NCBI GenBank assembly: GCA_903857495.1
Contig: CAIOFF010000023.1
Location: 1 to 64,000 of the forward strand
Length of the DNA stretch: 64,000 nt
Direction of reading: 5' to 3'
From: an uncultured Holophagaceae bacterium
GTDB taxonomy: Bacteria; Acidobacteriota; Holophagae; Holophagales; Holophagaceae
Shown: piece after piece, positions 20,724 through 39,957 of the stretch
Layout: each line of letters starts with the position of its first letter
Position numbering within the stretch: the first letter of the stretch is position 1
Made by a program: the position numbers and the translations under genes
Notes under the pieces: model-generated
What the model was told of the DNA's origin: nothing
What the model saw: the letters and a program-made list of their open reading frames with translations, nothing else
Databases searched by the model: none

Positions 20724-20789
20724 GGGGTTGGTCCTCCTTGATAGGTCTGAGTATAGATGGTGCATGCTCAGGGGAATGTCATTATTTTT

Positions 20790-22088: not shown

Positions 22089-22111
22089 GACAGCTCCGGG
22101 CCGGGAAGGCT

Positions 22112-23764: not shown

Positions 23765-26101
23765 CTACTTGTGAAGGTAAACGTTGTCTACGTAGACCGT
23801 GCCGCTGCCGGTTCCTGAAACGAACAGGAGCTGAGCCAGGTGAGAGCGGTTCCAGGTGGCGCCGCTCTTAACAAAACTGGCGATGGGGATCTCCAGGGAG
23901 ACCCACCGGCCGGTGCCGGTGAGGGCGGGTGTAGACGTGGCGGTGGCAGTGAAGGTGGCGTCGGTGTCATCGCCGCCGCCGTAGGCCCCGTTGGCCCCGA
24001 AGTCCACCAGCTTGGCCTGGAAGTTGGTGACGTCAGGAGTCCAGACATCCACGTGGAAATACGTCATGGTCGAGCCGTCGATGACATGGGCAGTGAACTC
24101 GACTCCCACGTAGCTGAGGCCGGTGTACTTCTTGACCACCTTGGAGGTGCCCGCGATGGTGTAGTCACTGCCGACGCCCACGCCCCAGCTGGCGGCCCAG
24201 GTGTCCACCGTGGCATTGGTGTAGGTGCCGCTGCTGGTGTAGAGAGAGATCACATTCGCCGCGGCCACGGAGGGGGTGGCGGCAACGGTGGTGGGGGCGG
24301 TGGCCCCGGTGGGCGCACTGAGGGGAGGTGCGGAAGGCCCGGTGGCGCCGATGAAGGTGATGGGGCCGACGTAGTAGGTCTTGTCCGCCGCGGGGGTGGT
24401 GCCGAACTCGGGGAAGATCGAGATCTTGTTGAAGGTGAAGGTGAGATCGAGCGCGGCGGTTCCTGCGGCGGGGACGCCCATGTCAAAGGTCAGCGTCTGC
24501 CAGCCCGCCGCAGCCGTGACATCGGCCTCGACCGTGTGCGTGCTGTTGTTGGCATCCTCGAGCTTGAGCTTCATGACCACCCCTGCCGCGGGGCAGTAGA
24601 CCACCGCCTTCAGGGTCTTGTTGGAAGCCGAGAAAGGGACGGTCCCAACGGAATCCAGGTAACCCACGGACAGGGTGGTCCCGGCCCAGGACTGGGCGCC
24701 GGTCGTCTTGACGATCTTGACCACCGGGGTGGTGGGCCCCCCCGCGGGAGCGCCCGTGCCAGGGATCGTGGAGGCGGTTCCGCCAAAATCGGTGCCCTTG
24801 TAGGTGAGGCTGCTGGTGTTGAAGTCAAGGACGGGGTAGGAGGATACGGCGGCCACAGTGTTGTAGGTCTGAGTGGCCGAGGCAGCGGCCGTGTTCAGGT
24901 TGCCGGCCAGGTCACTGAAGGCCCCAACCGCGATACCGATGGTGATGGTCCCCGTGGCATTGGTGGGCGGGGTGACCAGCAGGGTGTAGTGGGCGGCGTC
25001 CACCTTGGTGACACTGGAAGCCGCCGTGGCCCCGGTGACCGTCACATCGCTGGCGGTGAAGCTGGTGCCCACATCCTCGCTGAAGGTGAAGGTCAGGGTC
25101 ACGGGTCCGGTGATGGCGGTGCCACTGGTGCCGCTGATGGCAACGGTGGGTGCCACAGTGTCCGTCAGGGCCGGACCCGCGGGGGCGGAGGCACCGACGA
25201 AGGTGAGAGGGCCGACGTAGTAGATCAAGCCTGTTCCAGCGGCTCCGAAGGCCGGGAAGAGCGACACTTTGTTGTAGGTGTAGGCAAGGTTGATAGCGGC
25301 CGTGCCGGAAGACTGGGTCGCGAAGTCGAAGGTGAGGGTCTGCCAGCCGGTCGCGGCGGTCACGGCGTCGGTCTCGACCGAGTGCGTGCCGTCATTGGCG
25401 TCTTCGACCTTTAGCTTGAAGGAGGTGCCCGCGGCGCTGTAGACCACTGCGGTCATCTTGTGCGCGGTGGCAGAGAAGGGCAGCTTCGGGATCGAGTCGA
25501 GGTAGCCGACGGACAGCGTGGTGCCAGCCCAGATCTCGGCGCCCGCGGTCTTCGTGACCTGGACGACCTTGTTGGCGGGTCCGCCGGTGGGTATACCGGT
25601 GCTGGTGACCGCCGAGACGGTGCCACCGAAGTCCGTGGCCTTGTAGGTCAGGCCAGCAGTATTGAAGTCCAGCACCGTGTAGCTGACCACTGTGTTGAAG
25701 GGCTGAGTGGCCGTGGCAGCAGTCGTGTTGGCATTCCCGGCCAGGTCACTGAAGGCGCCAACGGCCACGCTGATGGTCATGGTGCCGGAGGCATTCGCGG
25801 CCGGCGTGGCCACCAGGGTGTAGTGGGTGGTGTCAACCTTGGTCACCGCTGCCGCGGCTGTGCCGTTCGTGACAGTGACATCGCTGGCCGTGAAGCTCGT
25901 GCCGACATCCTCACTGAAGGTGAAGCTCAAGGTCACGGGAGCACTGGTCGGAGTGGCGGTGGTGCCGCTGATGGCCACGGTGGGAGCCGTGGTATCTGCC
26001 GGCGCGGCGGGCGGCGAAGAGGTGCCACCACAGCCCATCAGGAGGGAAAAAACCAGAAGGGCCAGCGTCAGGAACGTCCTTCGGAAACGATCAGTCAGCA
26101 T
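23765..26101 (-). CDS. Modular Ig-like/carbohydrate-binding-like lipoprotein
   Basis: A 778-residue lipoprotein (lipobox LLMGC, Cys24) without a catalytic motif I recognise. Modules in order: Ig-like 1 (APTVAISGT... FSEDVGTSFTASDVTVT, about 40-145), a beta-rich module starting VLDFNTAGLTYKATDFGG (about 145-300), Ig-like 2 (about 315-420), a second copy of the beta-rich module starting VLDFNTSSLTYKGTDFGG (about 425-585), then a third type of beta-sandwich ending GTVYVDNVYLHK (about 615-778). The same ending style (LQVDNIYWSK) closes the GH17 protein. ATG 26101 follows GGAG; ATG 26113 is the alternative. Likely a cell-surface glucan-binding protein of the locus. Confidence 0.75.
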   Translation of the reverse strand: MLTDRFRRTFLTLALLVFSLLMGCGGTSSPPAAPADTTAPTVAISGTTATPTSAPVTLSFTFSEDVGTSFTASDVTVTNGTAAAAVTKVDTTHYTLVATPAANASGTMTISVAVGAFSDLAGNANTTAATATQPFNTVVSYTVLDFNTAGLTYKATDFGGTVSAVTSTGIPTGGPANKVVQVTKTAGAEIWAGTTLSVGYLDSIPKLPFSATAHKMTAVVYSAAGTSFKLKVEDANDGTHSVETDAVTAATGWQTLTFDFATQSSGTAAINLAYTYNKVSLFPAFGAAGTGLIYYVGPLTFVGASAPAGPALTDTVAPTVAISGTSGTAITGPVTLTFTFSEDVGTSFTASDVTVTGATAASSVTKVDAAHYTLLVTPPTNATGTITIGIAVGAFSDLAGNLNTAAASATQTYNTVAAVSSYPVLDFNTSSLTYKGTDFGGTASTIPGTGAPAGGPTTPVVKIVKTTGAQSWAGTTLSVGYLDSVGTVPFSASNKTLKAVVYCPAAGVVMKLKLEDANNSTHTVEADVTAAAGWQTLTFDMGVPAAGTAALDLTFTFNKISIFPEFGTTPAADKTYYVGPITFIGATGPSAPPLSAPTGATAPTTVAATPSVAAANVISLYTSSGTYTNATVDTWAASWGVGVGSDYTIAGTSKVVKKYTGLSYVGVEFTAHVIDGSTMTYFHVDVWTPDVTNFQAKLVDFGANGAYGGGDDTDATFTATATSTPALTGTGRWVSLEIPIASFVKSGATWNRSHLAQLLFVSGTGSGTVYVDNVYLHK

Positions 26102-26355
26102 CGTGCTCTCCATGTGTGGCTGCGGCCGGGTCGCCGCAAGGAGTGGTAGGAGACGGGCCAGTGGGCTGCAAACCGGATGGACCGTTCAAAGGAAGGGAGG
26201 GCGATCGGAAATCGAATCAAGGATGCATTTTTAAAATGGATCAGTATATGGTCTTTTTTTGTTTTCCATTATGAATTTTCGCGAAGACACCTCACCGGGA
26301 GCTTGCCCGGAATACCTCCACGAAAGGCTGGGGTCCAGGCTTTCCCACCCGGGGC
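26102..26355 (-). promoter_or_regulatory. AT-rich upstream region of the Ig-like lipoprotein gene
   Basis: This gap is strikingly AT-rich at 26213-26285 compared with its neighbours. It carries the motif AAAAAAAGACCATATAC on the minus strand (26260-26244), shared with two other promoter regions of this locus. A clear -35/-10 pair cannot be fixed; the T/A tracts at 26231-26275 are the probable promoter zone. Confidence 0.5.
26244..26260 (-). promoter_or_regulatory. Candidate glucan-locus operator, site A
   Basis: AAAAAAAGACCATATAC read on the minus strand, about 143 bases upstream of the Ig-like lipoprotein start. It matches site C (30005-30020) over 15 of 16 positions and site B (27536-27550) more loosely. 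Binding by the adjacent XylR-type regulator is inferred. Confidence 0.55.
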
Positions 26356-27534
26356 TCAGCGCCGCAGGAGACCTGCCCGGTAAAGCGCCGGTGTGGTCCC
26401 GGCCTCACGCTTGAAGAACCGGCAGAAGTAGGTGGCCGACTGGAAGCCGCATTCCCGGGCAATCTCTTCGAGTCCCAGGTTGGAGTTCTCAAGCAGCCGC
26501 ATGCCCCGGTTGAGGCGGACCCGGGTCATCTCCCGGGCGACCGGGCGGCCCAGGTGCTTCTTGAACAGGTTGTCCAGGGTGGACCGGGAGCAGTTGGCGA
26601 GCTCACAGACCTGCTCCACGGAGATCCCCCGGCAGGCGCGGTCCCGGATGATGCGGGAGGCGGCCAGGACGATGGGGTTGTGGGCCGTGGTGATGTCCGT
26701 GGACTGGCGCTCCACGACCCGCAGGGGGGGGTGGTTGTAGAGCCCGGGTTCGAGGCGCTCGCCGTCCAGCATGCGGGTCAGCATCTCTGCAGCCATCTGG
26801 CCGATACCTTCCCCGTTGGGCGCGACGCTGGTCAGCGTGGGCCGGCAGAGGCGGCAGAGGATCTCGTCGTTGTCCACGCCGATCACCGAGACGTCCGAGG
26901 GCATGGAGATGCCCAGGTCCCGGCAGGCGTTGATGATCTGCTGCCCGCGGATGTCGTTGCAGGCAAGGATCGCGCTGGGCTTGGGCAGCTTCGTCAGCCA
27001 GGCGGCCAGGGCCGGCTCGTATTCGAGTCCCCGCATCTCGCGGAACTGGAGGCTGATGTTCGCAGAGACCCTCGGGGGTGGTGCGTAGACGTCGACAACC
27101 CTGCCCAGGGCCTGGAGGATACGACAGAAGGCCTCCGAGCGCCGGTCCGAGAAGAAGATGCCTGGGTAGCCCCCAAAGGCGAAATGGACGAAGCCGGCCT
27201 GAACGAAGAAGTCCGCAGCCAGCTGGGCCACGACGGCGGGGTCCGTGTCGATGCAGGGCGAATCCGGGCAGTTGCCCTCCCCCTGGCAGTCCACCACGGG
27301 CACCCCCAGGGACTTGATCTGCCGCCCCAAGTCCGGGGTGGAGATGAAGCCGATGATCCCGTCGATGTGCCCCTTCTTCAGCCAGCCCGGGAGCTTCATG
27401 AACTCGGCCCGCTCATAGGGGAAGATGAGCCACTCCTCGTGCTCCAGGGCGTAGGTGGCAACCCCGCGGCAGATCCCCCGGCTGTACCCACCGGAGGCCG
27501 GGACGAGCAGGGCGATGTGTCGGATACCTGGCAT
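26356..27534 (-). CDS. XylR-type transcriptional regulator (LacI-like sensor, AraC DNA-binding domain)
   Basis: A 392-residue regulator. Residues 1-270 form a periplasmic-binding-protein-like sensor (RHIALLVPASGGYSRGICRGVATYA; IDTDPAVVAQLAADFFVQAGF; ILACNDIRGQQII; DVSVIGVDNDEILCRL), closely parallel to E. coli XylR. Residues 285-392 hold two AraC-type helix-turn-helix units (SVEQVCELANCSRSTLDNLFKK; GLEEIARECGFQSATYFCRFFKREAG). It sits inside the beta-1,3-glucan locus between the lipoprotein and GH81 genes, so the ligand is probably a glucan-derived sugar. A motif copy directly abuts its start codon, suggesting autoregulation. Confidence 0.9.
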   Translation of the reverse strand: MPGIRHIALLVPASGGYSRGICRGVATYALEHEEWLIFPYERAEFMKLPGWLKKGHIDGIIGFISTPDLGRQIKSLGVPVVDCQGEGNCPDSPCIDTDPAVVAQLAADFFVQAGFVHFAFGGYPGIFFSDRRSEAFCRILQALGRVVDVYAPPPRVSANISLQFREMRGLEYEPALAAWLTKLPKPSAILACNDIRGQQIINACRDLGISMPSDVSVIGVDNDEILCRLCRPTLTSVAPNGEGIGQMAAEMLTRMLDGERLEPGLYNHPPLRVVERQSTDITTAHNPIVLAASRIIRDRACRGISVEQVCELANCSRSTLDNLFKKHLGRPVAREMTRVRLNRGMRLLENSNLGLEEIARECGFQSATYFCRFFKREAGTTPALYRAGLLRR

Positions 27535-27535
27535 G

Positions 27536-27550
27536 AAAAAAGATCATACC
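27536..27550. promoter_or_regulatory. Candidate glucan-locus operator, site B
   Basis: AAAAAAGATCATACC lies immediately upstream of the regulator's ATG (start at 27534, minus strand), where bound protein could block initiation. It is the weakest of the three motif copies (T for C in GACC/GATC, and CC instead of TAC at the end). Confidence 0.45.
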
Positions 27551-27655
27551 CTACTCAAAGCAGGTAAAGCTGCCTCTCCCCAGGATCACCTGGGTTTCCC
27601 TGCTCCTGACTCGCTTTGGGTTCTCCTCCAGGCGGCCTTCCAGGGGCAGCGGTCT

Positions 27656-29920
27656 CTACTTCTCGGCCAGCGAGCGCGGCGGAACCGTCAGCTGGACCCC
27701 GTCGCTGAAGCGGACGTTGAGCGGCGTGGAGCCGGCGTTGTAGGCCAGGTGGGTCCGCGTGCCGTCCGGCTTGCGGAACACTGAGAACAGGGCCGTGTCC
27801 GCGGTGATGGACAGGTCGGGCACGCCCATGCGCTGGAGGCTCAGCAGCCAGTGCAAGGTGTGAGAGCGGGTGTCGCCGAACTCCACCGCCCCCCAGCGGT
27901 TCCACTGGGCGAGGGCGGCGGCCGGGTCGGCCAGCGCCAGGTACTTGGCGAAGACGTCCTGCCAGATGTCCGGCGGATCGGGACGCCGACCGGTCTTGGC
28001 GAAGACCGCGCTCTGGGCGGGCAGCTCGGCGAGGCTCTGCCGCACGAACTTCGGGTCCCGGCCCAGGTAGAGAGAGGCACTGGTAATGGGCAGCAGGTTG
28101 ATGCCCTTGATCTGGCGGGGTTCGTCGATCCACCACGTGTTGTGTGCGTATTTTCCCCCGAACAGCATGCTGACTTCGGTGTTGAGGTAGTCCGGCGGCA
28201 GGACCAAGTGGTCCAGATCGAACCAGTAGTGCTGAATGCTCGAGATCTCGGTGGTGTAGAGCCAGATGCCCAGGTCCCGCAGGGCCCGGTCGCCGGTGAC
28301 CTCGCCCCAGAGCACCAGCCCCGCCCAGGCGTTCACGGCCTCGGAGGAGGACTCCTGGTTGTTCCCGAAGGGTCCAAGGCCGATGCCGGAAGCCCAGGAG
28401 TGGCCCTCGTAGGCGTCGAAGTTGCGGAGGAACGGGAAGTCGCTCCCGCCGCGCCGGGTCGTGGCGATGTCGGCCACCAGCAGATCGACCATGGCCCCCC
28501 ACTGGTCCTTCCCGGCCCAGGCGGGATCCCGCAGCGCGATCTCGGCCATGGCGCGGATCCAGTAGCCGTAGTGGAAATGGTGGTCGTTCACCTGCTCGAC
28601 CCCGAAGTATTCCTCGGGGTAGGCGACCACGGTCCCCAGGGTCTTGGTGTAGCGGAAGTAGGTCTTGCGGCTCTCGCCGTTGAACCACATCTCGACGCGG
28701 CCCTTCAGCAGCTTCAGCAGCTGATCGCGCATCTCGAGATCACCCTGTTGCTCCGCCACGTTCATCAGGCTGGTGATGCGCTGCAGGCCCTTGCCCTGCC
28801 AGTAGGCTCCGTTCCCGATCTCCAGCAGCATGCGGCGGGCGTTGCGGAGGTCGGTCTTGAGCAGGTCCCGCAGCTCAGGCAGGCGGTCCCCAGCCTTGAT
28901 GCCCGGCCACCACGGCACGAAGCCTGTGTAGGTGGACGTGGTCTTGAAGCCGGGGGCCGCGAGCAGGTGGATGCGGCCCCGGAGCGTCTCATAGGCCGGG
29001 CCCAGGCGGCCCTTGACAGAAGCGTTGCCAAACCACTGGTGGGGATAAAGCCCCAGCAGGGGCGCGGCCTCAGGGCCTTCTAGGGTGCGGGTGTCCGCGT
29101 CGAAGCGGGTCTCCACCTGACCGCTGGCCCGGTTGACGTCCCAGGAGACGCGGGTCTCCTGCAGGAAGCTGTAGGCGTGCTTCATGAAGAGCTGCAGGGT
29201 GGCCGGCTGGTCATCCGGCAGCGCCGCGGCGGAGAGGTAGTCTCGGCCGGCCGGCATCCGGGCCAGCCACTGCTTCTCGCCGACCTTCTCCCAGCGGACC
29301 CCCGCAGGTCCGAAGAGGGCATAGGTGCGGGCCTTCACCTTCAGGGCGAGGACCCTCGGGTCCGCGCCATCGTCGATCCGGTTGCCCGCTTCCGGCAGGG
29401 TCAGCCGGACATCGCCCCGGGAGATCCGCAGGTAGGAGAAGGGCGAGCCGTGGGCGATGGTCGCCCGGAAGGTGTCCGGCCCCCGGGACATGTCGACTTC
29501 GATGGACCAGTCCCCGGCCTTGGCCAGCCGGGCCGGGCCGGGCTCGAAGGCTACGGGCGCAAGCAGGATCGGATCCTTGTGGGGGAAGTGGATCTCAGTG
29601 TCCCGGCGCTTGGTGGGAACGACCTCCCTGCCCGGCAGCGCCAGCTCCAGCCCGGCGGGGCTGAACCGGAAGGTCAGCGGCTGGGCGTAGATCACCTCGG
29701 GCTGGGGGCTGAACAGCAGCGCCGAATACCACTGGTTGGTCTGGGCGGCAGTCTTCAGCAGGGCCTCGGTGCGCATCGGCGCCGACGGCACGTCGCGGTC
29801 GCCGCCCTGGCCGCTGAGCCAGTAGGCGCCAGCGCCAGCCTTGACGGTCTGCGCGGGCACGGGAACCGACTGGAGCACACCCACCAGGGTCGCCAGCAGC
29901 AGGCATGGGATGGATTTCAT
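27656..29920 (-). CDS. GH81 endo-beta-1,3-glucanase (laminarinase)
   Basis: A 754-residue secreted enzyme with signal peptide (PCLLLATLVGVLQSVPVPAQ). It hydrolyses internal beta-1,3-glucosidic bonds with inversion. GH81 landmarks: NQWYSALLF, DHHFHYGYWI with Asp446, FPFLRNFDAYEGHSWASG, NNQESSSEAVNAW with Glu523 and Glu527 (the acidic pair of the active site) and EVSMLFGGKYAHNTWW. N-terminal beta-sandwich and C-terminal (alpha/alpha)6 domains fill the length with no extra binding module. Divergent from the porin; their shared gap carries site C. Probably periplasmic or extracellular. Confidence 0.93.
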   Translation of the reverse strand: MKSIPCLLLATLVGVLQSVPVPAQTVKAGAGAYWLSGQGGDRDVPSAPMRTEALLKTAAQTNQWYSALLFSPQPEVIYAQPLTFRFSPAGLELALPGREVVPTKRRDTEIHFPHKDPILLAPVAFEPGPARLAKAGDWSIEVDMSRGPDTFRATIAHGSPFSYLRISRGDVRLTLPEAGNRIDDGADPRVLALKVKARTYALFGPAGVRWEKVGEKQWLARMPAGRDYLSAAALPDDQPATLQLFMKHAYSFLQETRVSWDVNRASGQVETRFDADTRTLEGPEAAPLLGLYPHQWFGNASVKGRLGPAYETLRGRIHLLAAPGFKTTSTYTGFVPWWPGIKAGDRLPELRDLLKTDLRNARRMLLEIGNGAYWQGKGLQRITSLMNVAEQQGDLEMRDQLLKLLKGRVEMWFNGESRKTYFRYTKTLGTVVAYPEEYFGVEQVNDHHFHYGYWIRAMAEIALRDPAWAGKDQWGAMVDLLVADIATTRRGGSDFPFLRNFDAYEGHSWASGIGLGPFGNNQESSSEAVNAWAGLVLWGEVTGDRALRDLGIWLYTTEISSIQHYWFDLDHLVLPPDYLNTEVSMLFGGKYAHNTWWIDEPRQIKGINLLPITSASLYLGRDPKFVRQSLAELPAQSAVFAKTGRRPDPPDIWQDVFAKYLALADPAAALAQWNRWGAVEFGDTRSHTLHWLLSLQRMGVPDLSITADTALFSVFRKPDGTRTHLAYNAGSTPLNVRFSDGVQLTVPPRSLAEK

Positions 29921-30192
29921 GGTGGCCCTCCGGAACGGTCACCCGGAATGTAGACGATCGGCGCACCGGAAATGGGCCCCTCGGAAACTTTTTCAAGAAT
30001 TACGAAAAAGGACCATATACAACCTGTATTTTTGGTTTCACCTTGAATCAGCCTTCTCTCGGCCCAGTTATTAACCTGAAGACCTGCCAAGGAAAAGGGA
30101 CTGGAACCTGCAGATTCCCAAAGAATAAGAACAAGAAATCGTAGGTTTCGACGTTCATCCTCGCGATTCGACCTCCAGCCAAAAGGTGCACC
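29921..30192. promoter_or_regulatory. Divergent promoter region, GH81 and porin
   Basis: A 272-base gap serving two outward genes, AT-rich between 29985 and 30150. It contains site C and, just to its right, GTATTTTTGGTTTCACC (30026-30042), which could be an imperfect inverted partner of ACCATATAC. TTGAAT (30043-30048) is a possible -35 for the porin without a clear -10 at the right distance. Confidence 0.5.
30005..30020. promoter_or_regulatory. Candidate glucan-locus operator, site C
   Basis: AAAAAGGACCATATAC in the GH81/porin gap, about 85 bases upstream of GH81 and 173 upstream of the porin. It shares GACCATATAC exactly with site A. An imperfect inverted element GTATTTTTGGT starts 5 bases to its right. 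Confidence 0.55.
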
Positions 30193-31554
30193 ATGCACAT
30201 CGATATCCAGGGCTCAGCCACCGACCAACGACCTGCACAGCCGATCCTTGGCCGCATCCTCCAGAGGGGGCTGCCGTTCCTCGCGGGCCTGGCCTGCTGC
30301 ACCACCGCGGCGGCCCAGGGCCTCAGCTACGGGCCCTTCACCCTAAACGCCTTCGCCAAGTACGAGGGGGGGCGATCAAACAACCAGGCCAAGGACGCCC
30401 AGCTCTACCCCGGTGAGGACAAGCAGCGTGTGTGGGCGGACCAGCTCGTCATCGGCCGCGGCTACGGGACCGAGAGCACGGGTACCCTGCTGGTGCAGCC
30501 CTGGCTCGGCGTCAAGTTCGATATCGGTGGCGGCTTCAAGCTGAGCGCCCTGGTGAGCCAGCGATGGCGCGGCGGCCGGGGCCTGCCGACCACGGCCGAC
30601 GTGCCCGGTTACGTCTACGAGGAGAACGTGGCCATCAGCCACGAGGAGTATGGCAGCCTGCGGGTGGGCAAGATGACCGCGCGCGCCTGGGCCGTCGCCG
30701 ACTACCCCTACGGCACGAACGTGGGCCTGGCGGACGAGTGGGGCGCCAGTGGCGCCGGCTACGGCATGAACACCTCTGCCATCCGGTACACCTCCCGTGT
30801 CTTCGATGTGTTCCAGGGCGACCTGGTCCTCGAGGGCACCTACGACCGCGGCAACATGGCCTTCAAGACCCACAAGCCCAGGTTCTACGAGCTCTACGCC
30901 CAATACCACAGCGGCGATCTGGTGGTGGACGCGATCTTCCAGGACACCCGCAACGGCAACCCCATGGCCTGGGGCCATGGGCCCTTCACGGGCCTGACAC
31001 CCTTCCCCCAGGACGACAGCAAGCTCGGCGGCTCCGGCCAGGGCATCGCAATGGTGATGGCCCGCTACGAGCTGAACACCCACTGGCAGGTGTCCGGCGG
31101 TCTCCGCCGCAACCGCTGGAGTGGCGCCTACGCGGTGCTCACCAAGGTCGGCCCCCCGGATCTCTGGAACAACATGTTCAATGTCGACTGGGCCAGCACT
31201 GCCAACCCCCTGTGGAAACCGGGCTACGCCGCGACTTCCAACGACGGCTTCGCGGGCCTGCGCTACCGCTGGAACAAGTGGTCCACCTGGGCGGCCATGG
31301 AATACCTGGGCAGGGCCGCCACGGACAACCCTGCCGAGCGGGGCCAGAGCAACTGGGCCACCTACAACACAGCTGGCCTGCAATACGACTTCGGGCACGG
31401 GCTCGCCCTCTACGGCTCCGTGGGCATGGTCCACTACGGCCGGCTCGGGCTGTCTCCGATGTCCATGCCCACCAACTCCGCCTTCACCGGTGTCGACTCG
31501 CGCGTCACGCGCAACGGCAACTGGTTCATCCTGGGTGCCGTCTACGTCCTCTGA
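30193..31554 (+). CDS. Outer-membrane porin-like beta-barrel
   Basis: A 453-residue protein with a long-n-region signal (residues 1-42, ending TAAAQG) and a barrel-like pattern of alternating aromatic/hydrophobic strands: FTLNAFAKYEGG, LLVQPWLGVKFDI, SLRVGKMTARAW, AIRYTSRVFDVFQGDLVLEGTYD, FYELYAQYHSGDLVVDAIFQD, WFILGAVYVL at the C-terminus. It resembles porins of the Gram-negative porin superfamily, but the end is Leu rather than the usual Phe. Placed between GH81 and GH17, it probably admits glucan oligosaccharides. It starts with a short 5' overlap-free gap before GH17. Confidence 0.75.
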   Translation: MHIDIQGSATDQRPAQPILGRILQRGLPFLAGLACCTTAAAQGLSYGPFTLNAFAKYEGGRSNNQAKDAQLYPGEDKQRVWADQLVIGRGYGTESTGTLLVQPWLGVKFDIGGGFKLSALVSQRWRGGRGLPTTADVPGYVYEENVAISHEEYGSLRVGKMTARAWAVADYPYGTNVGLADEWGASGAGYGMNTSAIRYTSRVFDVFQGDLVLEGTYDRGNMAFKTHKPRFYELYAQYHSGDLVVDAIFQDTRNGNPMAWGHGPFTGLTPFPQDDSKLGGSGQGIAMVMARYELNTHWQVSGGLRRNRWSGAYAVLTKVGPPDLWNNMFNVDWASTANPLWKPGYAATSNDGFAGLRYRWNKWSTWAAMEYLGRAATDNPAERGQSNWATYNTAGLQYDFGHGLALYGSVGMVHYGRLGLSPMSMPTNSAFTGVDSRVTRNGNWFILGAVYVL

Positions 31555-31573
31555 TCCCTAAGGAACCATCGCC

Positions 31574-33289
31574 ATGTCGATTCAGCTGCCCGCCTTGATC
31601 CAACGCGCTTCTGCCTTCCTGCTCCTCGCCCTGCTGGCCGCCTGCGGCGGAGGGGGTGTCATCACTTCGGATGGCGTCGCCGTCCGCACGCTTCCGGCGG
31701 AATTCAGCTCCCGCCAGGGGGTGGCCTACTCGCCCTTCCGGACCGGGAATCGCGACACGGAGACCGTCACCACCGCGCACATCAAGCAGGATCTCGACCT
31801 GCTCGTGGCCGGCAACCTCAAGCTCATCCGCCTGTTCGACAGCTCCGACAGCGTCGCCAGACAGACCCTGCAGGTCATCAAGGACAACGCCCTGGACATC
31901 AAGGTCCAGCTCGGGGTCTACATCGTGAGCGGCAACGAGACCTTCAACCAGGCGGAGATTGCCCGCGGCATCGCCCTGGCCAACGCCTATCGCGACACGG
32001 TGCTGGCGGTCAGCGTGGGCAATGAGACCATGGTCAGCTGGTCCTTCAACCCCGTGTCCACCACCAAGATGGCCGCCTACATCACCCAGGTGCGCAACAA
32101 CATCTCCCAGCCCGTGACGACCGACGACAACTTCGCCTTCTTCGCCGGGGCCACTTCCGAGGTGCTCCGCACCATCGACTTCGTCGCCCTGCATACCTAC
32201 GCGCTGATCGACACGGTTTCAGATGCCGGTTCCTGGGACTGGAAGCAGGAGACCGTGGCCCCCAACCTCCGCGCCGCGGCGATGATGGACGCCGCCATTG
32301 CCAAGGCCAAGAAGGACTACAGCGCAGCCCGTACGAACCTCGACAAACTCGGCTACACCTTCCTGCCCATCATCATCGGCGAGACCGGCTGGAAGTCCGT
32401 GGCCACCGGCGGCGAGGTCTACCGCGCCCACCCGGTGAACCAGAAGATGTACGTGGACCGCCTCAAGGCCTGGCAGGCGGCAGCGGTGGCTGGCGGCGGC
32501 GGCCCCAGGACCATCGTCTACTTCGAGGCCTTCGACGAGCCCTGGAAGGGTGGCGATGACGGGTGGGGGCTCTTCAACGTGTCCCGCCAGGCCCGATATG
32601 TGATCCAGAGCCTCTATCCCTCTTCCCAGTGGGAGGCCGGGAGCTACACCGCGGCCGATGCCCTCTACTACGTCCCTCCCATCAACCACGGCCCCGTCAC
32701 CGCCAACCGCTACACCCTCTACGCCGAGACCTTGACTACAGGCGAGGTCCGCCCCGTGGAGACACCCATCTGGAACGCCTGGCAGAACGGCACCACCTCG
32801 GTCGCGTCCGAGACCTCATCCAGCTCGGTCGAAGGCACCAAGAGCATGGTGATCACGCCCACTCCCCTCGACTGGGGCTGGGGCATGACCATGGCCTTCA
32901 CCTACAGCTCGGACGACCTCACGGCCTTCGCCACGACCGGCTACCTGAACTTCAGCATCAAGACCACCTACCCCGGCAAGCTCGAGGTGGGCTTCCTGAC
33001 GGGCACCGCCGCGAATACCAGCCTCTATGACGTCTATCTCCCCATCCAGTCCGGCGACTACGGCTACGTGAACGACGGGGCCTGGCACAACGTCAAGATC
33101 CCCATCAGCGCCATCACGCCCCACGGCGCCATGGCCTACGGCATGACGGATCCCACCAAGGCCAAGCTGGACCTGGCCACTCTCACCAACCCCTTCGTGA
33201 TCGCCGACCGCTACGCTGTCACCGGCAAGGCGACCAACAGCAACATCACGACCGCCCTCCAGGTGGACAACATCTACTGGTCGAAGTGA
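31574..33289 (+). CDS. GH17-like beta-1,3-glucanase lipoprotein
   Basis: A 571-residue lipoprotein (lipobox LLAAC, Cys24). The catalytic barrel matches GH17: GVAYSPFRTG, IRLFDSSDS, VSVGNETMVSW with acid/base Glu151, VDFVALHTYAL-like IDFVALHTY, IIGETGWKS with nucleophile Glu270, and YFEAFDEPWKGGDDGWGLF. Residues about 370-571 form a beta-sandwich that may bind glucan (ends LQVDNIYWSK). GH17 enzymes cleave or transglycosylate beta-1,3-glucans with retention. It follows the porin after 19 bases. Confidence 0.9.
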   Translation: MSIQLPALIQRASAFLLLALLAACGGGGVITSDGVAVRTLPAEFSSRQGVAYSPFRTGNRDTETVTTAHIKQDLDLLVAGNLKLIRLFDSSDSVARQTLQVIKDNALDIKVQLGVYIVSGNETFNQAEIARGIALANAYRDTVLAVSVGNETMVSWSFNPVSTTKMAAYITQVRNNISQPVTTDDNFAFFAGATSEVLRTIDFVALHTYALIDTVSDAGSWDWKQETVAPNLRAAAMMDAAIAKAKKDYSAARTNLDKLGYTFLPIIIGETGWKSVATGGEVYRAHPVNQKMYVDRLKAWQAAAVAGGGGPRTIVYFEAFDEPWKGGDDGWGLFNVSRQARYVIQSLYPSSQWEAGSYTAADALYYVPPINHGPVTANRYTLYAETLTTGEVRPVETPIWNAWQNGTTSVASETSSSSVEGTKSMVITPTPLDWGWGMTMAFTYSSDDLTAFATTGYLNFSIKTTYPGKLEVGFLTGTAANTSLYDVYLPIQSGDYGYVNDGAWHNVKIPISAITPHGAMAYGMTDPTKAKLDLATLTNPFVIADRYAVTGKATNSNITTALQVDNIYWSK

Positions 33290-33305
33290 GCGGCGCGCAG
33301 CAGGC

Positions 33306-34238
33306 ATGAGCGGCGTGGAGATGCTTACTTCCTCCGAGCAGGGCTACCTTGTGAAGGGGCTCCGCAGCGCCAGCGCGGAGCTCCTGATGGTCCCCGAGCT
33401 CGGCGGGAGGATCATCAGCCTGCGCTGCCTGAAGTCGGGTCGGGAGTGGTGCTGGCACCAGCCCCGCCCCGACTGGCTCTGGCCCAACGACGGCGGTGAT
33501 GACTTTGCCAACAGCCCCCAGGCTGGCATCGACGAGTGCGTGCCCACCGTGGCGGCGTGCCAGGTGCGCGGCAGGCGGCTCCCCGACCACGGCGAGGTCT
33601 GGTACCAGGACTGGCCGCTGGACCCCGAAGCGCTCGCGTCCCGGGAGCTGCGGGCCACGGTCCCACTCACGGTCTCGCCCCTCGTCTTCAGCCGGGGCAT
33701 CCGGGTCGCGAAGGATGGCGCTTTCGTCTTCGACTACAGCCTGCGCAACACGGGCTTGCTCTCGGAGCCCTACCTCTGGAGCTTCCATCCGCTGCTGAAC
33801 CTGGAGCCGGGTGATCGCCTGGAGCTGCCCGCCGAAGTCCGAGAGCTCCGGCTGAACGGGGGGCTGGGAGTGCCCATGGCCCAGGGCGACCTGTGGGACT
33901 ACCCGGAGCCTATCCCAGGCATCCGCCTCGACGAGGCGGCACTGCCGGGCATGCCCGGCGCCTGTCTCAAGGGCTTCGCGGGTCCGCTTGACCAGGGCCT
34001 TGCCGCCGTGGTGAACGACCGCACCGGGGACCGCCTCGAGCTCCAGTGGGACGCCACCGTCATCCCCTACCTCGGCCTCTGGATCAACCGCGGACACGGT
34101 GGCTTCCACCACCTGGCCCTGGAGCCGACCTCTGGTGCTCCGGACTCCCTCGCGGACGCGGTGGAGTCCTGGAGCCAGCATGGCGTCCTGCCCCCGCGCG
34201 GGACCGCGCACTGGTCCTTGAGACTCAACCTTTCCTAG
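33306..34238 (+). CDS. Aldose 1-epimerase-like protein
   Basis: A 310-residue galactose-mutarotase-fold protein with no signal. The layout follows aldose epimerases (ELGGRIISLRCLKSGREW; GIDECVPTVAAC; SFHPLLNLEPGDRLELP; LGLWINRGHGGFHHLALEPTSGAPDSL with an EPxxG-like catalytic Glu). It would interconvert anomers of released glucose or oligosaccharides before phosphorolysis or kinase action. Start ATG 33306 is 16 bases from the GH17 stop; GTG/ATG alternatives exist nearby. Substrate not provable. Confidence 0.78.
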   Translation: MSGVEMLTSSEQGYLVKGLRSASAELLMVPELGGRIISLRCLKSGREWCWHQPRPDWLWPNDGGDDFANSPQAGIDECVPTVAACQVRGRRLPDHGEVWYQDWPLDPEALASRELRATVPLTVSPLVFSRGIRVAKDGAFVFDYSLRNTGLLSEPYLWSFHPLLNLEPGDRLELPAEVRELRLNGGLGVPMAQGDLWDYPEPIPGIRLDEAALPGMPGACLKGFAGPLDQGLAAVVNDRTGDRLELQWDATVIPYLGLWINRGHGGFHHLALEPTSGAPDSLADAVESWSQHGVLPPRGTAHWSLRLNLS

Positions 34239-34253
34239 CTTGCGGAGGCCCGC

Positions 34254-35744
34254 GTGGGTGAATCAGTGGAACGGGTCCAGGCGGGAGAATCGGCAGCCCT
34301 CGAGGGCAGGCTCTCCTTCGTGGAAAAGGCCGGCTACTCGCTGGGCGATGCGGCCTCGAACTTCTACTGGAAGACCTTCGAGTTCTTCATCATCTTCTTC
34401 TACACGGATGTGTTCGGCATCTCCGCGGCGGCCGTTGGCACCATGATGCTGGTCACCCGGGTGCTCGATGCCGTGGCCGACCCGGTCATGGGCACCATTG
34501 CCGACCGCACTCAGACCCGCTGGGGCCACTTCCGGCCCTACCTGCTGTGGTTCGCCCTCCCCCTGGCCGCCGCCGGCGTCATCACCTTCACCACGCCCAA
34601 CTTCGGCCCCTCCGGCAAGCTGGTCTACGCCTACGTGACCTACTGCCTCCTGATGCTGCTCTACACGGCCGTGAACATTCCCTACAGCGCCCTGCTGGGG
34701 GTCATGACACCCAGCTCCATCGAGCGCACGTCCCTGGCCTCCTTCCGGTTCGTCGGCGCCTTCTCCATCGCTGTGCTGGTGCAGTACTGCACGCCCAGCC
34801 TGGCCCAGTGGTTCGGCATGAGCTCCGCCCTGCGCGCCCAGCACAGCTTCCTGGCCCATCCCGTCGAGTGGGTGCGGTGGTTCCTCTCCCGGGACTTCCT
34901 CCTGCTGCCCTCGGACCCCATCCAGGGCTGGCAGCTGACCATGGCCCTCTACGGCGTGTGCGCCGTGGTCCTGCTATTCCTCTGCTTCTTCCTGACCCGG
35001 GAGCGGGTCACGCCTCCCGAGGACCAGAGCCCCGACTTCAAGGAGGACCTGAAGAGCATGGCCACCAGCCGCTCCTTCGTGGTGATGCTGGGAGTGCTGA
35101 TCATCATGATCATGTCCTTCGTGCTCCGGGGCTCGGTCTCGGCCTACTACTTCAAGTACTACGTGCACCGCAATGACCTGCTGGGCCCCTTCCTGGTGGC
35201 CAACGCCCTGGCCTTCCTGGCTGCCGTGGTCATCACCCCCACCATCGCCAAACACTTCGACAAGAAGAACCTGTTCATCGCGGCCATCGGCATCGGCGGC
35301 CTTATCATTGGCAGCTTCTGGCTCGCCAAGCCCTCAGACATCAGCCTCATGTTCGGCCTCCAGGTCCTCGCCAGCTTCGTCATCGGCTTCAACTCGCCCC
35401 TGGTCTGGGCCATGTTCGCCGACACCGCCGATGACGCGGAGTGGCGTCTGGGGCGCCGCAACACCGGCCTGGTCTTCGCCTCGGCGGTCTTCGGCATGAA
35501 GATCGGCCTGGCCATCGGCGCCTGGGTGACGGGCCTGGTCCTGACACTGTTCGGCTACGTCCCGAACCTTGACCAGTCCGCCAGCTCCCTCCTGGGCATC
35601 CGCCTCTCCATGAGCCTCTTCCCCGGCGTGCTGCTGGTGATCGCGGCGGTCCTGATGAAGGCCTATCCCCTCGATGACAAGAAGATGATCCAGATCGAGA
35701 AGGATCTGGCGGCCCGCAAGAAGATCGCGGCGGGTGAAGCCTGA
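34254..35744 (+). CDS. GPH-family sugar:cation symporter (MelB-like MFS)
   Basis: A 496-residue inner-membrane transporter of 12 helices starting at GTG 34254. The first helix is preceded by FVEKAGYSLGDAASNFYWKTFEFFIIFFYTDV, the GPH hallmark with its Asp; DAVADPVMGTIADRTQTRWGHFRPY matches the family signature loop. GPH carriers move glycosides with Na+ or H+. Position in the locus suggests laminaribiose or longer beta-1,3-gluco-oligosaccharides. Its TGA overlaps the phosphorylase ATG (TGATG). Confidence 0.9.
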   Translation: MGESVERVQAGESAALEGRLSFVEKAGYSLGDAASNFYWKTFEFFIIFFYTDVFGISAAAVGTMMLVTRVLDAVADPVMGTIADRTQTRWGHFRPYLLWFALPLAAAGVITFTTPNFGPSGKLVYAYVTYCLLMLLYTAVNIPYSALLGVMTPSSIERTSLASFRFVGAFSIAVLVQYCTPSLAQWFGMSSALRAQHSFLAHPVEWVRWFLSRDFLLLPSDPIQGWQLTMALYGVCAVVLLFLCFFLTRERVTPPEDQSPDFKEDLKSMATSRSFVVMLGVLIIMIMSFVLRGSVSAYYFKYYVHRNDLLGPFLVANALAFLAAVVITPTIAKHFDKKNLFIAAIGIGGLIIGSFWLAKPSDISLMFGLQVLASFVIGFNSPLVWAMFADTADDAEWRLGRRNTGLVFASAVFGMKIGLAIGAWVTGLVLTLFGYVPNLDQSASSLLGIRLSMSLFPGVLLVIAAVLMKAYPLDDKKMIQIEKDLAARKKIAAGEA

Positions 35745-38700
35745 TGGATGATCGGAGAACCTCAAGGATGCGCACCACCTACATCTCTGATGCCGAGCTC
35801 AAGGGGCAGGACGCAGCCGTCTCAGGCTTCCTGGCGGAGATCGACGGCGAGCCCTGCTACTGCGTCGCCAACCACGACGCCATGGCCCCCTTCTTCATGA
35901 GCCTGGTGAGCGATTCAGACCACTGGCTGTTCATCTCCAGCAATGGCGCCCTCACCGCCGGACGCCGGGACCCGGACAACGCCCTCTTTCCCTACTACAC
36001 CGATGACCGGATCCACGACAGCCAGGATCAGACGGGCAGCAAGACCCTCCTGCGCATCACCCGTGGTGGCCAGACCTGGCTCTGGGAGCCCTTCTCCCAG
36101 CGGATGGAAGGGTTGTACCGCGTCACGCGGAACCTCTGCAAGAGCGTCTATGGCAACAAAATCCTCTTCGAAGAGATCAACCACGACCTCGGCCTGACCT
36201 TCCGCTACGAGTGGATGAACAGCGAGCGTTTCGGCTTCGTGCGCCGGGCAGCCCTCTCCAACCAGGGCACCGAGGCCATCTCCGCCGAGGTGGTCGACGG
36301 CATCGAGAACGTGCTGCCCTGGGGGGTGGAGCGTCGCTTCCAGGTGGAATACAGCACCCTGGTCGATGGCTACAAGCGCACCGAGTTGCTGGCAGGCACG
36401 GGCCTGGCCCTCTTCCGCCTCAGTTCCGTCCCCGTGGACAAGCCCGAGCCCAGCGAGGCGCTGCGGGTGAACTTGGCCTGGTCCACGGGCCTGGAACCGG
36501 CCAGGCGCCTCCTCTCCACCGCCCAGCTCCGAGCCTTCCGGCACGGCGAGACAGTGCAGGAGGAGACGGATATCCGTGGCCGGCGTGGCGCCTACCTGCT
36601 GAACGCGACCTTCCCCTTGGAACCAGGTGCCCGCAAAGACTGGCTGGTGGTCGCCGAGCTCGACCAAGATGCCACCCGCGTCGTGGCCCTCAACCAGCGG
36701 CTGGCCTCCGGCGCCGACCTCATGCCGGAAGTCCTGGAGGACGTGGCCCGGGGCACCCGGAACCTGATGCGACTCGTGGCCAGCGCCGATGGCCTGCAGA
36801 CCACGGGCGACCACCTGAACACCTGGCGGCACTTCTCGAACACCCTGTTCAACCTTCTGCGCGGTGGCGTGCCCGAGGATGGCTACGGGATCACCCGCGC
36901 GGACCTCAGGCTGTTCCTGGAAGAGTCCAACAAGGGCGTTGCGCAGCGCCACGGAGCCTTCCTGGACGCCCTGCCCGAACGCCTGGCCCATGGCGACCTC
37001 ATGGCCCGGGTGGCGGCCCTGGGCGACCCGGACCTGGAGCGCCTGACCCGGGAATACCTACCCCTCACCTTCAGCCGGCGCCATGGCGATCCCAGCCGCC
37101 CGTGGAACGCCTTTTCCATCAAGGTGAAGGACGAGCAGGGCAGGAAGCTTCTCACCTACGAGGGCAACTGGCGGGACATCTTCCAGAACTGGGAGGCCCT
37201 TGGCTACTCCTACCCCGACTACCTGGAGAGCATGGTCTTCAAGTTCCTGGACTGCTCCACGGTGGAGGGCTACAACCCCTACCGGCTGCTGCGGGCGGGC
37301 TTCGACTGGGAGGTGAGCGATCCCCACGATCCCTGGTCCTTCATCGGCTACTGGGGGGACCACCAGGTCATCTACCTCCTGAAGCTGCTGGAGGCCTCCC
37401 GCCGCTTCCACCCGGGCCGGCTGGCAGAGCTGCTGGGCCGGCGCGTCTTCACCTACGCAAACGTCCCCTACCGCCTCAAGACCTACGAGGCCATGCTGGC
37501 GGATCCCCACAGCACCATCGACTTCGACGCGGACCTGCACCAGCAGACCCTGGACCGGGCGGCGACCCTGGGCGCTGATGGCCTGGCAGTGTGGGACGCC
37601 CAGGGTCCAGTCCGGGCCAACCTCACAGAGAAGCTCCTGGTGGTGGCCCTCTCCAAGCTCACCAGCTACATCCCCGGGGCCGGCATCTGGATGAACACCC
37701 AGCGCCCCGAGTGGAATGACGCCAACAATGCCCTGGTGGGCTACGGCGTCTCCATGGTCACCCTCTGCTACCTGCGTCGCTACCTGGCCTTCTGCGAGGA
37801 GCTTTTCGGGGAGGCTCCGGCGCCCAGCCAGGAAGTGGCCGGTGAGCTGGCGGAGCTCCTGGAGGTCGTGGCCCGGGTCCTGGAACAGCACGCCCCACCC
37901 ACAGACCGCGCCTTCACGGACGCAGAACGTCGGCTCATCCTGGATCCGCTTGGCCAGGCGGGCTCCAGCTACCGCACCAAGGTCTATGCCAGCGGCTTCA
38001 CCGCGCCGAGGACCCTTGTTTCCCGGGAGCGCCTGGAGGCCTTCTGTGCCGTCGCCCTGGCCCACATCGACCATGCCATCCGGGCCAACCGCCGCAGCGA
38101 CGGCCTCTACCACGCCTACAACGTCATGAAGCTCACCGGCGACGGCATCGAGGTGCGCGGGCTGCACGAGATGCTTGAGGGCCAGGTGGCGGTGCTCAGC
38201 TCCGGCGCCCTCTCCGCCGAAGAGTCCGTCGCGGTGCTCGACGCACTGCGGGCCAGCGCCCTCTACCGACCTGACCAGGCCAGCTACCTCCTCTATCCCG
38301 ACCACCCGCTGCCGCACTTCCTGGAGAAGAACACGCTGCCCGCGGCCGCCCTCGCGGACTCCGCCTTGCTGCGTGCCCTTCTGGCCGCCGGTGACGAGCG
38401 CCTCGCGAGCCGCGACGTGGCAGGCCACGTCCACTTCAACCCGGCCTTCCGGAACGCCGAGGGTCTGAGACTCGCCCTGGAGGACCTGAAGGCCGGCCCC
38501 CACCGGTCCCTGGTCGTGGCCGACGAAACCAGGCTCCTGGAGCTCTACGAGGAGGTCTTCGACCACCGCTCCTTCACCGGCCGCTCCGGGACCTTCTACA
38601 AATACGAAGGCCTCGGCTGCGTCTACTGGCACATGGTCTCAAAGCTGCTCCTGGCCGTGGATGAGGTGATGCGCCAGGCCGCCCGCCACGACGCGGGGGC

Positions 38701-39220
38701 CCTGCCCCGCCTCCAGCGGCACTACCAGGCCATCCGCGAGGGCCTCGGCGTCCACAAGTCCCCGGCCCTGCACGGCGCCATTCCCACGGATCCCTACTCC
38801 CACACCACGGGCTTCGCCGGCGCCCAGCAGCCGGGCATGACCGGGCAAGTGAAGGAGGACCTCCTCTCCCGCATGAGCGAGGTGGGGGTGCGCGTGGCGC
38901 AGGGCCGCATCATCTTCCAGCCCTGGGCCGTCTCGACGGCGGAGTTCCTGCAAGAGCCCGCCACCTTCCGCCATGTGGACCTGGCCGGTCAGCCTCGCAT
39001 GCTGGCCCTGGAGGCCGGTACTTTCGCCTTCACTTTCTGCCAGGTCCCGGTGGTGGTCCACCGGGCGGGCCCGGCAGGCCTCCGAATCACCCGCCAGGAC
39101 AGTGCCAGCTCTGCCCGCCCGGAGCTTGCCCTGGACGCATCCACCAGCCGCCTCATCTTCAGCCGCTCAGGTGAAATCCATCGCCTCGACGTGTTCCTCG
39201 GTCTCCCGGGGCAGGCCTGA
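35744..39220 (+). CDS. GH94-like beta-1,3-glucan phosphorylase candidate (GH149/GH161 type)
   Basis: A 1158-residue cytoplasmic protein without signal. It has an N-terminal beta-sandwich (about residues 1-300: HDAMAPFFMSLVSDSDHWLF; TWLWEPFSQRMEGL), a helical linker and an (alpha/alpha)6 region (about 400-1000) with RPEWNDANNALVGYG near residue 655; Asp659 would be the general acid by analogy with the WND element of GH94 phosphorylases. YYTDDRIHDSQDQTG, FEEINHDLGLTFRYEW and KYEGLGCVYWHMVSKL are other fixed-looking blocks. Size and context fit the GH149 or GH161 beta-1,3-glucan phosphorylases, which release glucose 1-phosphate. The ATG at 35768 has GGAGA nine bases upstream and may be the true start. 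Confidence 0.75.
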   Translation: MDDRRTSRMRTTYISDAELKGQDAAVSGFLAEIDGEPCYCVANHDAMAPFFMSLVSDSDHWLFISSNGALTAGRRDPDNALFPYYTDDRIHDSQDQTGSKTLLRITRGGQTWLWEPFSQRMEGLYRVTRNLCKSVYGNKILFEEINHDLGLTFRYEWMNSERFGFVRRAALSNQGTEAISAEVVDGIENVLPWGVERRFQVEYSTLVDGYKRTELLAGTGLALFRLSSVPVDKPEPSEALRVNLAWSTGLEPARRLLSTAQLRAFRHGETVQEETDIRGRRGAYLLNATFPLEPGARKDWLVVAELDQDATRVVALNQRLASGADLMPEVLEDVARGTRNLMRLVASADGLQTTGDHLNTWRHFSNTLFNLLRGGVPEDGYGITRADLRLFLEESNKGVAQRHGAFLDALPERLAHGDLMARVAALGDPDLERLTREYLPLTFSRRHGDPSRPWNAFSIKVKDEQGRKLLTYEGNWRDIFQNWEALGYSYPDYLESMVFKFLDCSTVEGYNPYRLLRAGFDWEVSDPHDPWSFIGYWGDHQVIYLLKLLEASRRFHPGRLAELLGRRVFTYANVPYRLKTYEAMLADPHSTIDFDADLHQQTLDRAATLGADGLAVWDAQGPVRANLTEKLLVVALSKLTSYIPGAGIWMNTQRPEWNDANNALVGYGVSMVTLCYLRRYLAFCEELFGEAPAPSQEVAGELAELLEVVARVLEQHAPPTDRAFTDAERRLILDPLGQAGSSYRTKVYASGFTAPRTLVSRERLEAFCAVALAHIDHAIRANRRSDGLYHAYNVMKLTGDGIEVRGLHEMLEGQVAVLSSGALSAEESVAVLDALRASALYRPDQASYLLYPDHPLPHFLEKNTLPAAALADSALLRALLAAGDERLASRDVAGHVHFNPAFRNAEGLRLALEDLKAGPHRSLVVADETRLLELYEEVFDHRSFTGRSGTFYKYEGLGCVYWHMVSKLLLAVDEVMRQAARHDAGALPRLQRHYQAIREGLGVHKSPALHGAIPTDPYSHTTGFAGAQQPGMTGQVKEDLLSRMSEVGVRVAQGRIIFQPWAVSTAEFLQEPATFRHVDLAGQPRMLALEAGTFAFTFCQVPVVVHRAGPAGLRITRQDSASSARPELALDASTSRLIFSRSGEIHRLDVFLGLPGQA

Positions 39221-39285: not shown

Positions 39286-39957
39286 TCAACACTTGAGCGA
39301 CTCCCAGGCGATGAGCCACGTGTCCATGACCCCTCTGAAATGGCTCCTCGGCGGTCCGGGGTGGTAGATGGCGCGGATGGGGATGTGGGCCCAGTGGAGC
39401 TTCCAGTCCGCGGCCTTCATGGCGATCTCCATCTCGATGGCGAAGCCGCGGGAGCGCAGGTCCAGGCGGTCGAGGACCTTCTTGCGGATCAGGCGGAAGC
39501 CGCTCTGGGTGTCCTCCCAGGTGACCCCGGCGATGCGGCCCAGGGTCCAGCTGCCCAAGGCGTTGGTCCGCCAGCGCTTGGCCGGAATCCGGGCGCGGTC
39601 CTGGTGACGTGAGCCGATGAGGAAGTCCGTATCAGGATGGGCAGCGAGCTGGTCGAGGAAGCCCTGCAGGTCCGCGGGGTCGTGCTGCCCGTCCGCGTCC
39701 AGGAACAGGTAGAAGTCGAAAAGGTCGCCGCAGAGGTGGGCGATGCCGGCGCGCATGGCCTGGCCCTTGCCGCCGCCCTGCCCCGGCTCGAGCCGCAGCA
39801 CCTCGGCGCCAGCAGCCCGGGCGCAGTCGCCGGTGCCGTCCGTGGAGCCGTCGTCCACCACCAGGATGCGGTGGAGACCGAAGGGCTGCAGTCCGGCCAG
39901 CACCGCCGGGAGGGCCTCGGCCTCATCATGGGCGGAGAGGATCGCGGCGATCCTCAC
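39286..39957 (-). CDS. Family 2 glycosyltransferase (DPM1/polyprenyl-phosphate type)
   Basis: A 223-residue cytoplasmic GT-A protein: VRIAAILSAHDEAEAL, ILVVDDGSTDGTGD, QGGGKGQAMRAG, FDFYLFLDADGQHDPADL (DxD), DTDFLIGSRHQ, DTQSGFRLIRKKVL. These match dolichol/undecaprenyl-phosphate mannosyl- or glucosyltransferases. No membrane helix. GTG 39957 overlaps the M61 gene's stop (GTGA) and so reads as the second gene of its operon. Acceptor unknown. Confidence 0.85.
   Translation of the reverse strand: MRIAAILSAHDEAEALPAVLAGLQPFGLHRILVVDDGSTDGTGDCARAAGAEVLRLEPGQGGGKGQAMRAGIAHLCGDLFDFYLFLDADGQHDPADLQGFLDQLAAHPDTDFLIGSRHQDRARIPAKRWRTNALGSWTLGRIAGVTWEDTQSGFRLIRKKVLDRLDLRSRGFAIEMEIAMKAADWKLHWAHIPIRAIYHPGPPRSHFRGVMDTWLIAWESLKC

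What the first reader, a model, noticed from the sequence alone, without database searches (positions are those of the whole stretch)
23765..39220. A coherent beta-1,3-glucan (laminarin-type) utilisation locus with phosphorolysis
GH81 (27656-29920, active-site Asp446/Glu523/Glu527), a GH17 lipoprotein (Glu151/Glu270), a porin, GPH symporter, epimerase-like protein, XylR-type regulator and an 1158-residue GH94-like phosphorylase candidate sit together. Known enzymology of GH81 and GH17 explains extracellular cutting; a phosphorylase would save ATP by making glucose 1-phosphate. There is no SusC/SusD pair, so this is a non-Bacteroidetes design using a porin instead. The system logic is inference; the families are seen in the sequence.
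Basis: partly seen in the sequence, partly recalled or inferred. Interest (0 to 1): 0.8.

Follow-up and report, generated by a model that had tools for sequence, protein, structure and literature searches.

The report
Beta-1,3-glucan eating locus using a porin
A bacterium of the genus Geothrix carries a compact gene cluster for eating beta-1,3-glucans (laminarin- or curdlan-like sugar polymers) that breaks the last bonds with phosphate instead of water; sister species run the same pathway through a different outer-membrane gate, which makes the cluster a ready natural experiment, though the basic kind of locus is already known.

Summary
The 1158-aa protein is not merely GH94-like: it is a GH149 1,3-beta-glucan phosphorylase (NCBIfam NF058639, 1568 bits against a cut-off of 1150; PDB 6hq6, 1198 bits) with all three active-site motifs. 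GH81, GH17 lipoprotein, GPH symporter, mutarotase-like protein and XylR-type regulator are confirmed. The unnamed 782-aa lipoprotein at the left edge ends in a carbohydrate-binding-module fold. Porin, GH17, mutarotase-like, symporter and GH149 genes form a tight operon.

Relatives show two locus types in this family. Type A (this one, 6 genomes): porin, GH81, large GH17, mutarotase-like gene. Type B (8 genomes): TonB-dependent receptor, small outer-membrane protein, small GH17. Regulator, symporter and GH149 are shared. Porin and receptor never co-occur. A 14-bp motif lies upstream of the lipoprotein and porin genes: two copies in the 3.7-Mb genome, and in the genus only at GH149 loci.

GH149 clusters with GH17, MFS_2 symporter and regulator are published (2018), so this is a new variant of a known kind. 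New here: the exclusive porin/receptor exchange, the candidate operator, and a porin without a detectable family. No growth or expression data exist.

The parts
23765..26113 (-). 782-aa lipoprotein: two Big_12 Ig-like domains, two repeated jelly-roll-like domains, C-terminal CBM-like domain; candidate surface glucan-binding protein
   Evidence: Pfam Big_12 5.9e-24; lipobox LMGC; C-terminal domain predicted at pLDDT 94.5 and matched to CBM11, CBM30 and the laminarin-binding CBM X584; the domain recurs beside GH149 in many Bacteroidota loci
26244..26258 (-). candidate operator AAAAAGACCATATAC, 130 bp upstream of the lipoprotein start codon
26356..27534 (-). XylR-type regulator (LacI-like sensor domain plus AraC DNA-binding domain)
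   Evidence: PF13377, PF12833, PF22177; orthologue in 10 of 11 GH149+ and 1 of 36 GH149- genomes of the genus
27656..29920 (-). GH81 endo-beta-1,3-glucanase with signal peptide, no lipobox
   Evidence: PF17652; PDB 6fop, 5v1w; D446, E523, E527
30006..30020 (+). candidate operator AAAAGGACCATATAC between GH81 and the porin operon, 172 bp upstream of the porin start codon
30193..31554 (+). 453-aa porin, Porin_4-like by its constriction-loop motif
   Evidence: signal peptide; conserved only in type A loci; profile alignment to a Porin_4 protein
31574..33289 (+). GH17 beta-1,3-glucanase lipoprotein with C-terminal CBM30-like region
   Evidence: PF00332, weak CBM30, PDB 6fcg; E151 and E270
33306..34238 (+). 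aldose-1-epimerase-like (mutarotase) protein, no signal peptide
   Evidence: H95, H161, E273
34254..35744 (+). GPH-family sugar:cation symporter (MFS_2)
   Evidence: TIGR00792 and PF13347
35744..39220 (+). GH149 1,3-beta-glucan phosphorylase, no signal peptide
   Evidence: NF058639 1568.4 bits; PDB 6hq6 1198.5 bits; R477-D478, W657-N658-D659 and H963 match Pro_7066 R470-D471, W651-N652-D653 and H959

Best explanation
It is a beta-1,3-glucan utilisation locus of a Geothrix species. A GH81 endo-glucanase and a GH17 lipoprotein cut the glucan at or outside the outer membrane, helped by a lipoprotein carrying carbohydrate-binding modules. Short oligosaccharides diffuse through a dedicated porin, enter the cytoplasm by a GPH cation symporter, and are phosphorolysed by GH149 down to glucose, giving glucose 1-phosphate that phosphoglucomutase feeds into glycolysis without ATP. 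The mutarotase-like protein speeds the anomer exchange of the sugars. A XylR-type activator senses a small sugar and switches on two transcription units through a shared 14-bp operator. Shown from sequence: families, active-site residues, operon spacing, conserved synteny, porin/receptor exclusion, motif distribution. Inferred: substrate, cell location of GH81, porin selectivity, motif-regulator binding, role of the mutarotase.
For: GH149 assignment with active site. GH81 and GH17 with catalytic residues. The same gene set is kept together in five other Geothrix genomes at 52-85% identity, in two gene orders. Operon gaps 19/16/15/-1 bp. Regulator orthologue in 10 of 11 GH149+ against 1 of 36 GH149- genomes of the genus, p 2e-8 without correction for kinship. 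Motif: exactly two copies in 3.7 Mb; nine exact copies in the genus, in eight GH149+ genomes, all in this locus; none in 36 genomes without it; reversed-pattern control zero. Lipoprotein C-terminal domain has a CBM fold with CBM11, CBM30 and the laminarin-binding X584 among the matches. Two phosphoglucomutase-type genes in the genome. Characterised GH149 enzymes phosphorolyse beta-1,3-oligosaccharides down to glucose (PMC6484121).
Against: No growth, induction or enzyme data. The porin has no family match and its single-sequence fold failed (pLDDT 29), so its role rests on context and one local profile match. The motif pattern was derived from these loci, so its presence there is by construction; only its absence elsewhere is informative. 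Glucokinase was not searched for. Whether GH81 leaves the cell is unknown.
Confidence: 0.87

Rival explanations
1. The locus targets another glucan, for example mixed-linkage beta-1,3/1,4-glucan or beta-1,3/1,6-glucan of fungal or oomycete walls, rather than laminarin-type storage glucan.
For: Best fold match of the binding domain is CBM11, which binds mixed-linkage glucan. GH30 proteins nearest to endo-1,6-beta-glucanases sit by the locus in two type A relatives.
Against: [quoted passage not shown] Fungal or callose beta-1,3-glucan is not excluded and may be as likely as laminarin in soil or freshwater sediment (inference).
Confidence: 0.3
2. The porin is a general diffusion pore that happens to lie in the operon, and oligosaccharides enter by other outer-membrane routes.
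For: Its only detectable kin is a Porin_4 general porin; TonB-type receptors of other subfamilies are likely present in the genome (not tested).
Against: It is conserved 65-72% in exactly the six type A genomes, always in the locus, and absent from the rest of 93 genomes of the class and from the other genomes of 396 drawn across the phylum; the type B receptor (75% identity or more) is absent exactly where it is present.
Confidence: 0.2
3. GH149 acts in synthesis here, building beta-1,3-glucan from glucose 1-phosphate as a reserve.
For: The reaction is reversible (PMC5827456).
Against: Operon with secreted glucanases, porin, importer and a sugar-responsive type of regulator; no synthetic partners in the locus.
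Confidence: 0.03

Closest known systems
GH149 Type II clusters of Alteromonadales (Kuhaudomlarp et al. 2018, PMC5827456)
   Same: GH149 with GH17, MFS_2 (pfam13347) inner-membrane transporter, further glucanase and regulator; same pathway logic.
   Different: Those have a TonB-dependent receptor, GH16 and a two-component regulator; this locus has a porin, GH81, a CBM lipoprotein, a mutarotase-like gene and a XylR-type regulator. The type B relatives in this family are closer to Type II.
Laminarin PULs of Bacteroidota (for example Formosa Hel1_33_131)
   Same: GH149, GH17, often GH30 and lipoprotein-type genes with the same C-terminal domain.
   Different: Those use SusC/SusD; no SusD is present in this genome.
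GH161 clusters of Paenibacillus (PMC6484121)
   Same: Phosphorolysis of beta-1,3-oligosaccharides after import.
   Different: GH161 stops at the disaccharide and works with ABC transporters and GH1 or GH94; this enzyme is GH149.

Membership tests
GH149 1,3-beta-glucan phosphorylase | Full-length match to the curated family model above its cut-off | tested here: met
   NF058639, 1568.4 bits against 1150, residues 24-1151; PDB 6hq6 1198.5 bits
GH149 1,3-beta-glucan phosphorylase | WND catalytic loop, RD motif, phosphate-site histidine | tested here: met
   W657-N658-D659, R477-D478, H963 against Pro_7066 residues in PMC6771811
GH149 1,3-beta-glucan phosphorylase | Phosphorolytic activity on beta-1,3-gluco-oligosaccharides | not testable with these tools
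   needs purified enzyme
GH81 endo-beta-1,3-glucanase | Family match and catalytic Asp/Glu residues | tested here: met
   PF17652 and PDB 6fop, 5v1w alignments; D446, E523, E527
GH17 | Family match with acid/base and nucleophile Glu | tested here: met
   PF00332 32.5 bits over 28.2; 6fcg alignment; E151 and E270
SusC/SusD PUL | SusD homologue next to a SusC receptor | tested here: not met
   no SusD_RagB (PF07980) in the genome; the control genome Bacteroides ihuae rings
GH149 Type II cluster | TonB-dependent receptor in the cluster | tested here: not met
   porin in its place; the receptor orthologue is absent from this genome
Porin_4-type general porin | Match to a curated porin family | tested here: inconclusive
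   no Pfam or NCBIfam match for six members; local profile match to a Porin_4 protein at the loop-3 region, hhalign E 4e-5, probability 70
Aldose 1-epimerase superfamily | Homology to solved members and catalytic His/His/Glu | tested here: met
   hmmsearch 3q1n E 6.9e-5; H95, H161, E273 invariant in six sequences; the residue roles are from general knowledge of GalM

The most novel reading that the evidence does not exclude
One genus carries two interchangeable outer-membrane front ends on the same beta-1,3-glucan phosphorolysis pathway: a TonB-dependent receptor with little external cutting (selfish uptake), or a dedicated glucan porin of a new, lineage-restricted family coupled to secreted GH81, large GH17 and a mutarotase (external digestion). 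The locus would then be a natural switch between private and shared polysaccharide feeding under one regulator and one operator.
Probability: 0.4. Interest if true: 0.62.

Novelty: new variant of a known kind. Interest (0 to 1): 0.45.

Why it matters
GH149 clusters were described chiefly in Proteobacteria and Bacteroidota; this places a complete and regulated one in Geothrix, a genus that the held literature does not connect with beta-1,3-glucan. The clean exchange of porin plus external glucanases for a TonB-dependent receptor, with symporter, phosphorylase and regulator held constant, lets one test directly whether the outer-membrane gate decides between external digestion and selfish uptake. 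The two-copy operator gives a simple regulon prediction.

Tried and rejected
Single-sequence fold of the porin: failed, pLDDT 29, not used. An aligned porin fold was not attempted, because the related porins come from whole-genome loci outside the tool's stated list. Search for a porin donor in 398 Pseudomonadota genomes, 16 GH149-bearing genomes of other groups and 72,556 plasmids: nothing beyond weak local matches. Type A as one clade in the GH149 tree: not recovered, but not rejected either (p-AU 0.175; at least 2 changes on the free tree), so one or two switches are both possible. Sigma-70 consensus promoters: none found, as in shuffles. The PF10633 search was only a probe to obtain the genome handle. 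GH161 and GH94 for the phosphorylase: rejected. The epimerase-like gene on a Pseudoalteromonas plasmid (24% identity) lies in a galactonate-type pathway and tells little here.
Full report
OBSERVATION. Pfam and NCBIfam scans confirm GH81 (PF17652), GH17 (PF00332), a GPH symporter (TIGR00792), a XylR-type regulator (LacI-like sensor plus AraC DNA-binding domain) and, decisively, GH149 for the 1158-aa protein: NF058639 with 1568.4 bits against a cut-off of 1150. Against solved structures, the GH149 enzyme Pro_7066 (6hq6) scores 1198.5 bits while two further phosphorylases, one of them named GH161, reach 57-58. The active-site residues named for Pro_7066 (W651-N652-D653, R470-D471, H959; PMC6771811) correspond to W657-N658-D659, R477-D478 and H963 here.

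OTHER PARTS. In 6fop the position of E523 is alanine, while a BhGH81 chain (5v1w) has glutamate there; I take 6fop for an active-site mutant, from memory. The 310-aa protein belongs to the aldose-epimerase superfamily (hmmsearch with six relatives, 3q1n, E 6.9e-5) with H95, H161 and E273 invariant. The 453-aa porin matches no Pfam or NCBIfam model, but its profile aligns to residues 108-166 of a Porin_4 protein (hhalign E 4e-5), the stretch that holds the constriction loop of general porins (inference). Its C-terminal domain, folded with 29 relatives taken from other GH149 loci, gave pLDDT 94.5 and matches CBM11 (Z 13.2), CBM30 (12.5) and the laminarin-binding CBM X584, 8qx6 (11.5); some non-CBM jelly rolls score as high, so the fold alone does not prove binding. 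A repeated inner domain also has a weak sequence match to 8qx6 (E 0.056).

OPERON AND CELL LOCATION. Porin, GH17, epimerase-like, symporter and GH149 genes are spaced 19, 16, 15 and -1 bp apart. Lipoboxes are seen in the 782-aa protein and GH17, signal peptides without lipobox in GH81 and porin, and none in the epimerase-like protein and GH149 (read by eye).

RELATIVES. GH149 is found in 16 of 93 genomes of the class and in 11 of 47 of the genus. Two locus types emerge. Type A (window, G025, G046, G049, G051, G052): porin, GH81, large GH17, epimerase-like protein, symporter, GH149. Type B (G011, G026, G029, G032 and four genomes of another genus, G072, G073, G075, G077): a 1141-aa TonB-dependent receptor (CarboxypepD_reg + Plug), a 195-aa outer-membrane protein, a small GH17, symporter, GH149. 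Class-wide searches put the porin in exactly the six type A genomes and the receptor, at 75% identity or more, in exactly the eight type B genomes; Fisher p 3.3e-4, uncorrected for kinship. GH81 and the epimerase-like gene occur only in type A loci. In the GH149 tree type A is not one clade, but that is not rejected (p-AU 0.175), so the front end changed once or twice. The porin is absent from 396 genomes drawn across the phylum apart from type A members, from the 80 other GH149 loci and from 398 Pseudomonadota: its origin is unknown.

REGULATION. The regions upstream of the lipoprotein and of the porin share AAAAAGACCATATAC / AAAAGGACCATATAC; four matches with up to 3 mismatches in the window against 0.19 expected, two of them exact. 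The same element precedes lipoprotein or porin genes in relatives of both types. As AAARGAYCATWTAC it occurs twice in the 3.7-Mb genome and nine times in 47 genomes of the genus, every time in this locus, never in the 36 genomes without GH149, and the reversed pattern never occurs. The pattern was built from these loci, so only the absence elsewhere is evidence. The XylR-type regulator is 66-81% identical in 10 of the 11 GH149+ genomes and present in one of 36 others. That one, G041, has a receptor, 195-aa protein, regulator, BglX-type GH3 and GH30 but no GH149, a hydrolytic version of the same locus. That the regulator binds the motif is inference.

MECHANISM. GH81 and GH17 cut; the CBM lipoprotein holds the glucan; the porin passes short oligosaccharides; the symporter imports them; GH149 yields glucose 1-phosphate and, at the end, glucose; two PGM-type genes are present, two GH3-domain genes lie elsewhere, no SusD. 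A passive pore fits with more cutting outside, which is what type A carries (GH81, larger GH17 with CBM), whereas a TonB-dependent receptor can take longer chains; this pairing is inference but fits 6 of 6 and 8 of 8 genomes. Since GH81 is inverting (general knowledge), a mutarotase that accompanies GH81 makes sense but is untested.

KNOWN OR NEW. Kuhaudomlarp et al. 2018 described GH149 clusters with GH17, pfam13347 transporter, GH16, TonB-dependent receptor and regulator, and Bacteroidota PULs. The locus is thus a new variant of a known kind. I found no held paper linking Geothrix to GH149 or laminarin use; papers outside the held library were not searched.

Noticed in passing
L162 (G041:C1:727500-747000), 8039-18576: A Geothrix genome without GH149 has the type B receptor, 195-aa outer-membrane protein and XylR-type regulator next to a BglX-type GH3 and a GH30 nearest to endo-1,6-beta-glucanases: a hydrolytic version of the locus.
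   Followed up: partly
L038, L039, L040: GH149 genes 57-59% identical to the window's lie in bins labelled Brockarchaeota, Demequina and Rhizomicrobium and group with or next to acidobacterial GH149 in the tree; mis-binning or transfer.
   Followed up: no
window 39286-41789 and relatives L019-L030: The downstream neighbours (GT2 and M61 peptidase genes) are not found near the locus in any relative fetched, so the locus appears to sit at different chromosomal sites.
   Followed up: partly
L020 15521-17158; L165 13571-14932: GH30 genes, one of them nearest to endo-1,6-beta-glucanases, flank two type A loci, suggesting branched glucans as substrate in those species.
   Followed up: partly
window 20001-23328: Upstream of the locus lie Tol-Pal genes (TolB, Pal) and ribonuclease HII, ordinary housekeeping genes.
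   Followed up: no
G036:C227 and G036:C304 (L016, L018): A GH149 gene split over two short contigs; neither porin, type B receptor nor regulator found in this 84% complete genome, so its type is undecided.
   Followed up: no
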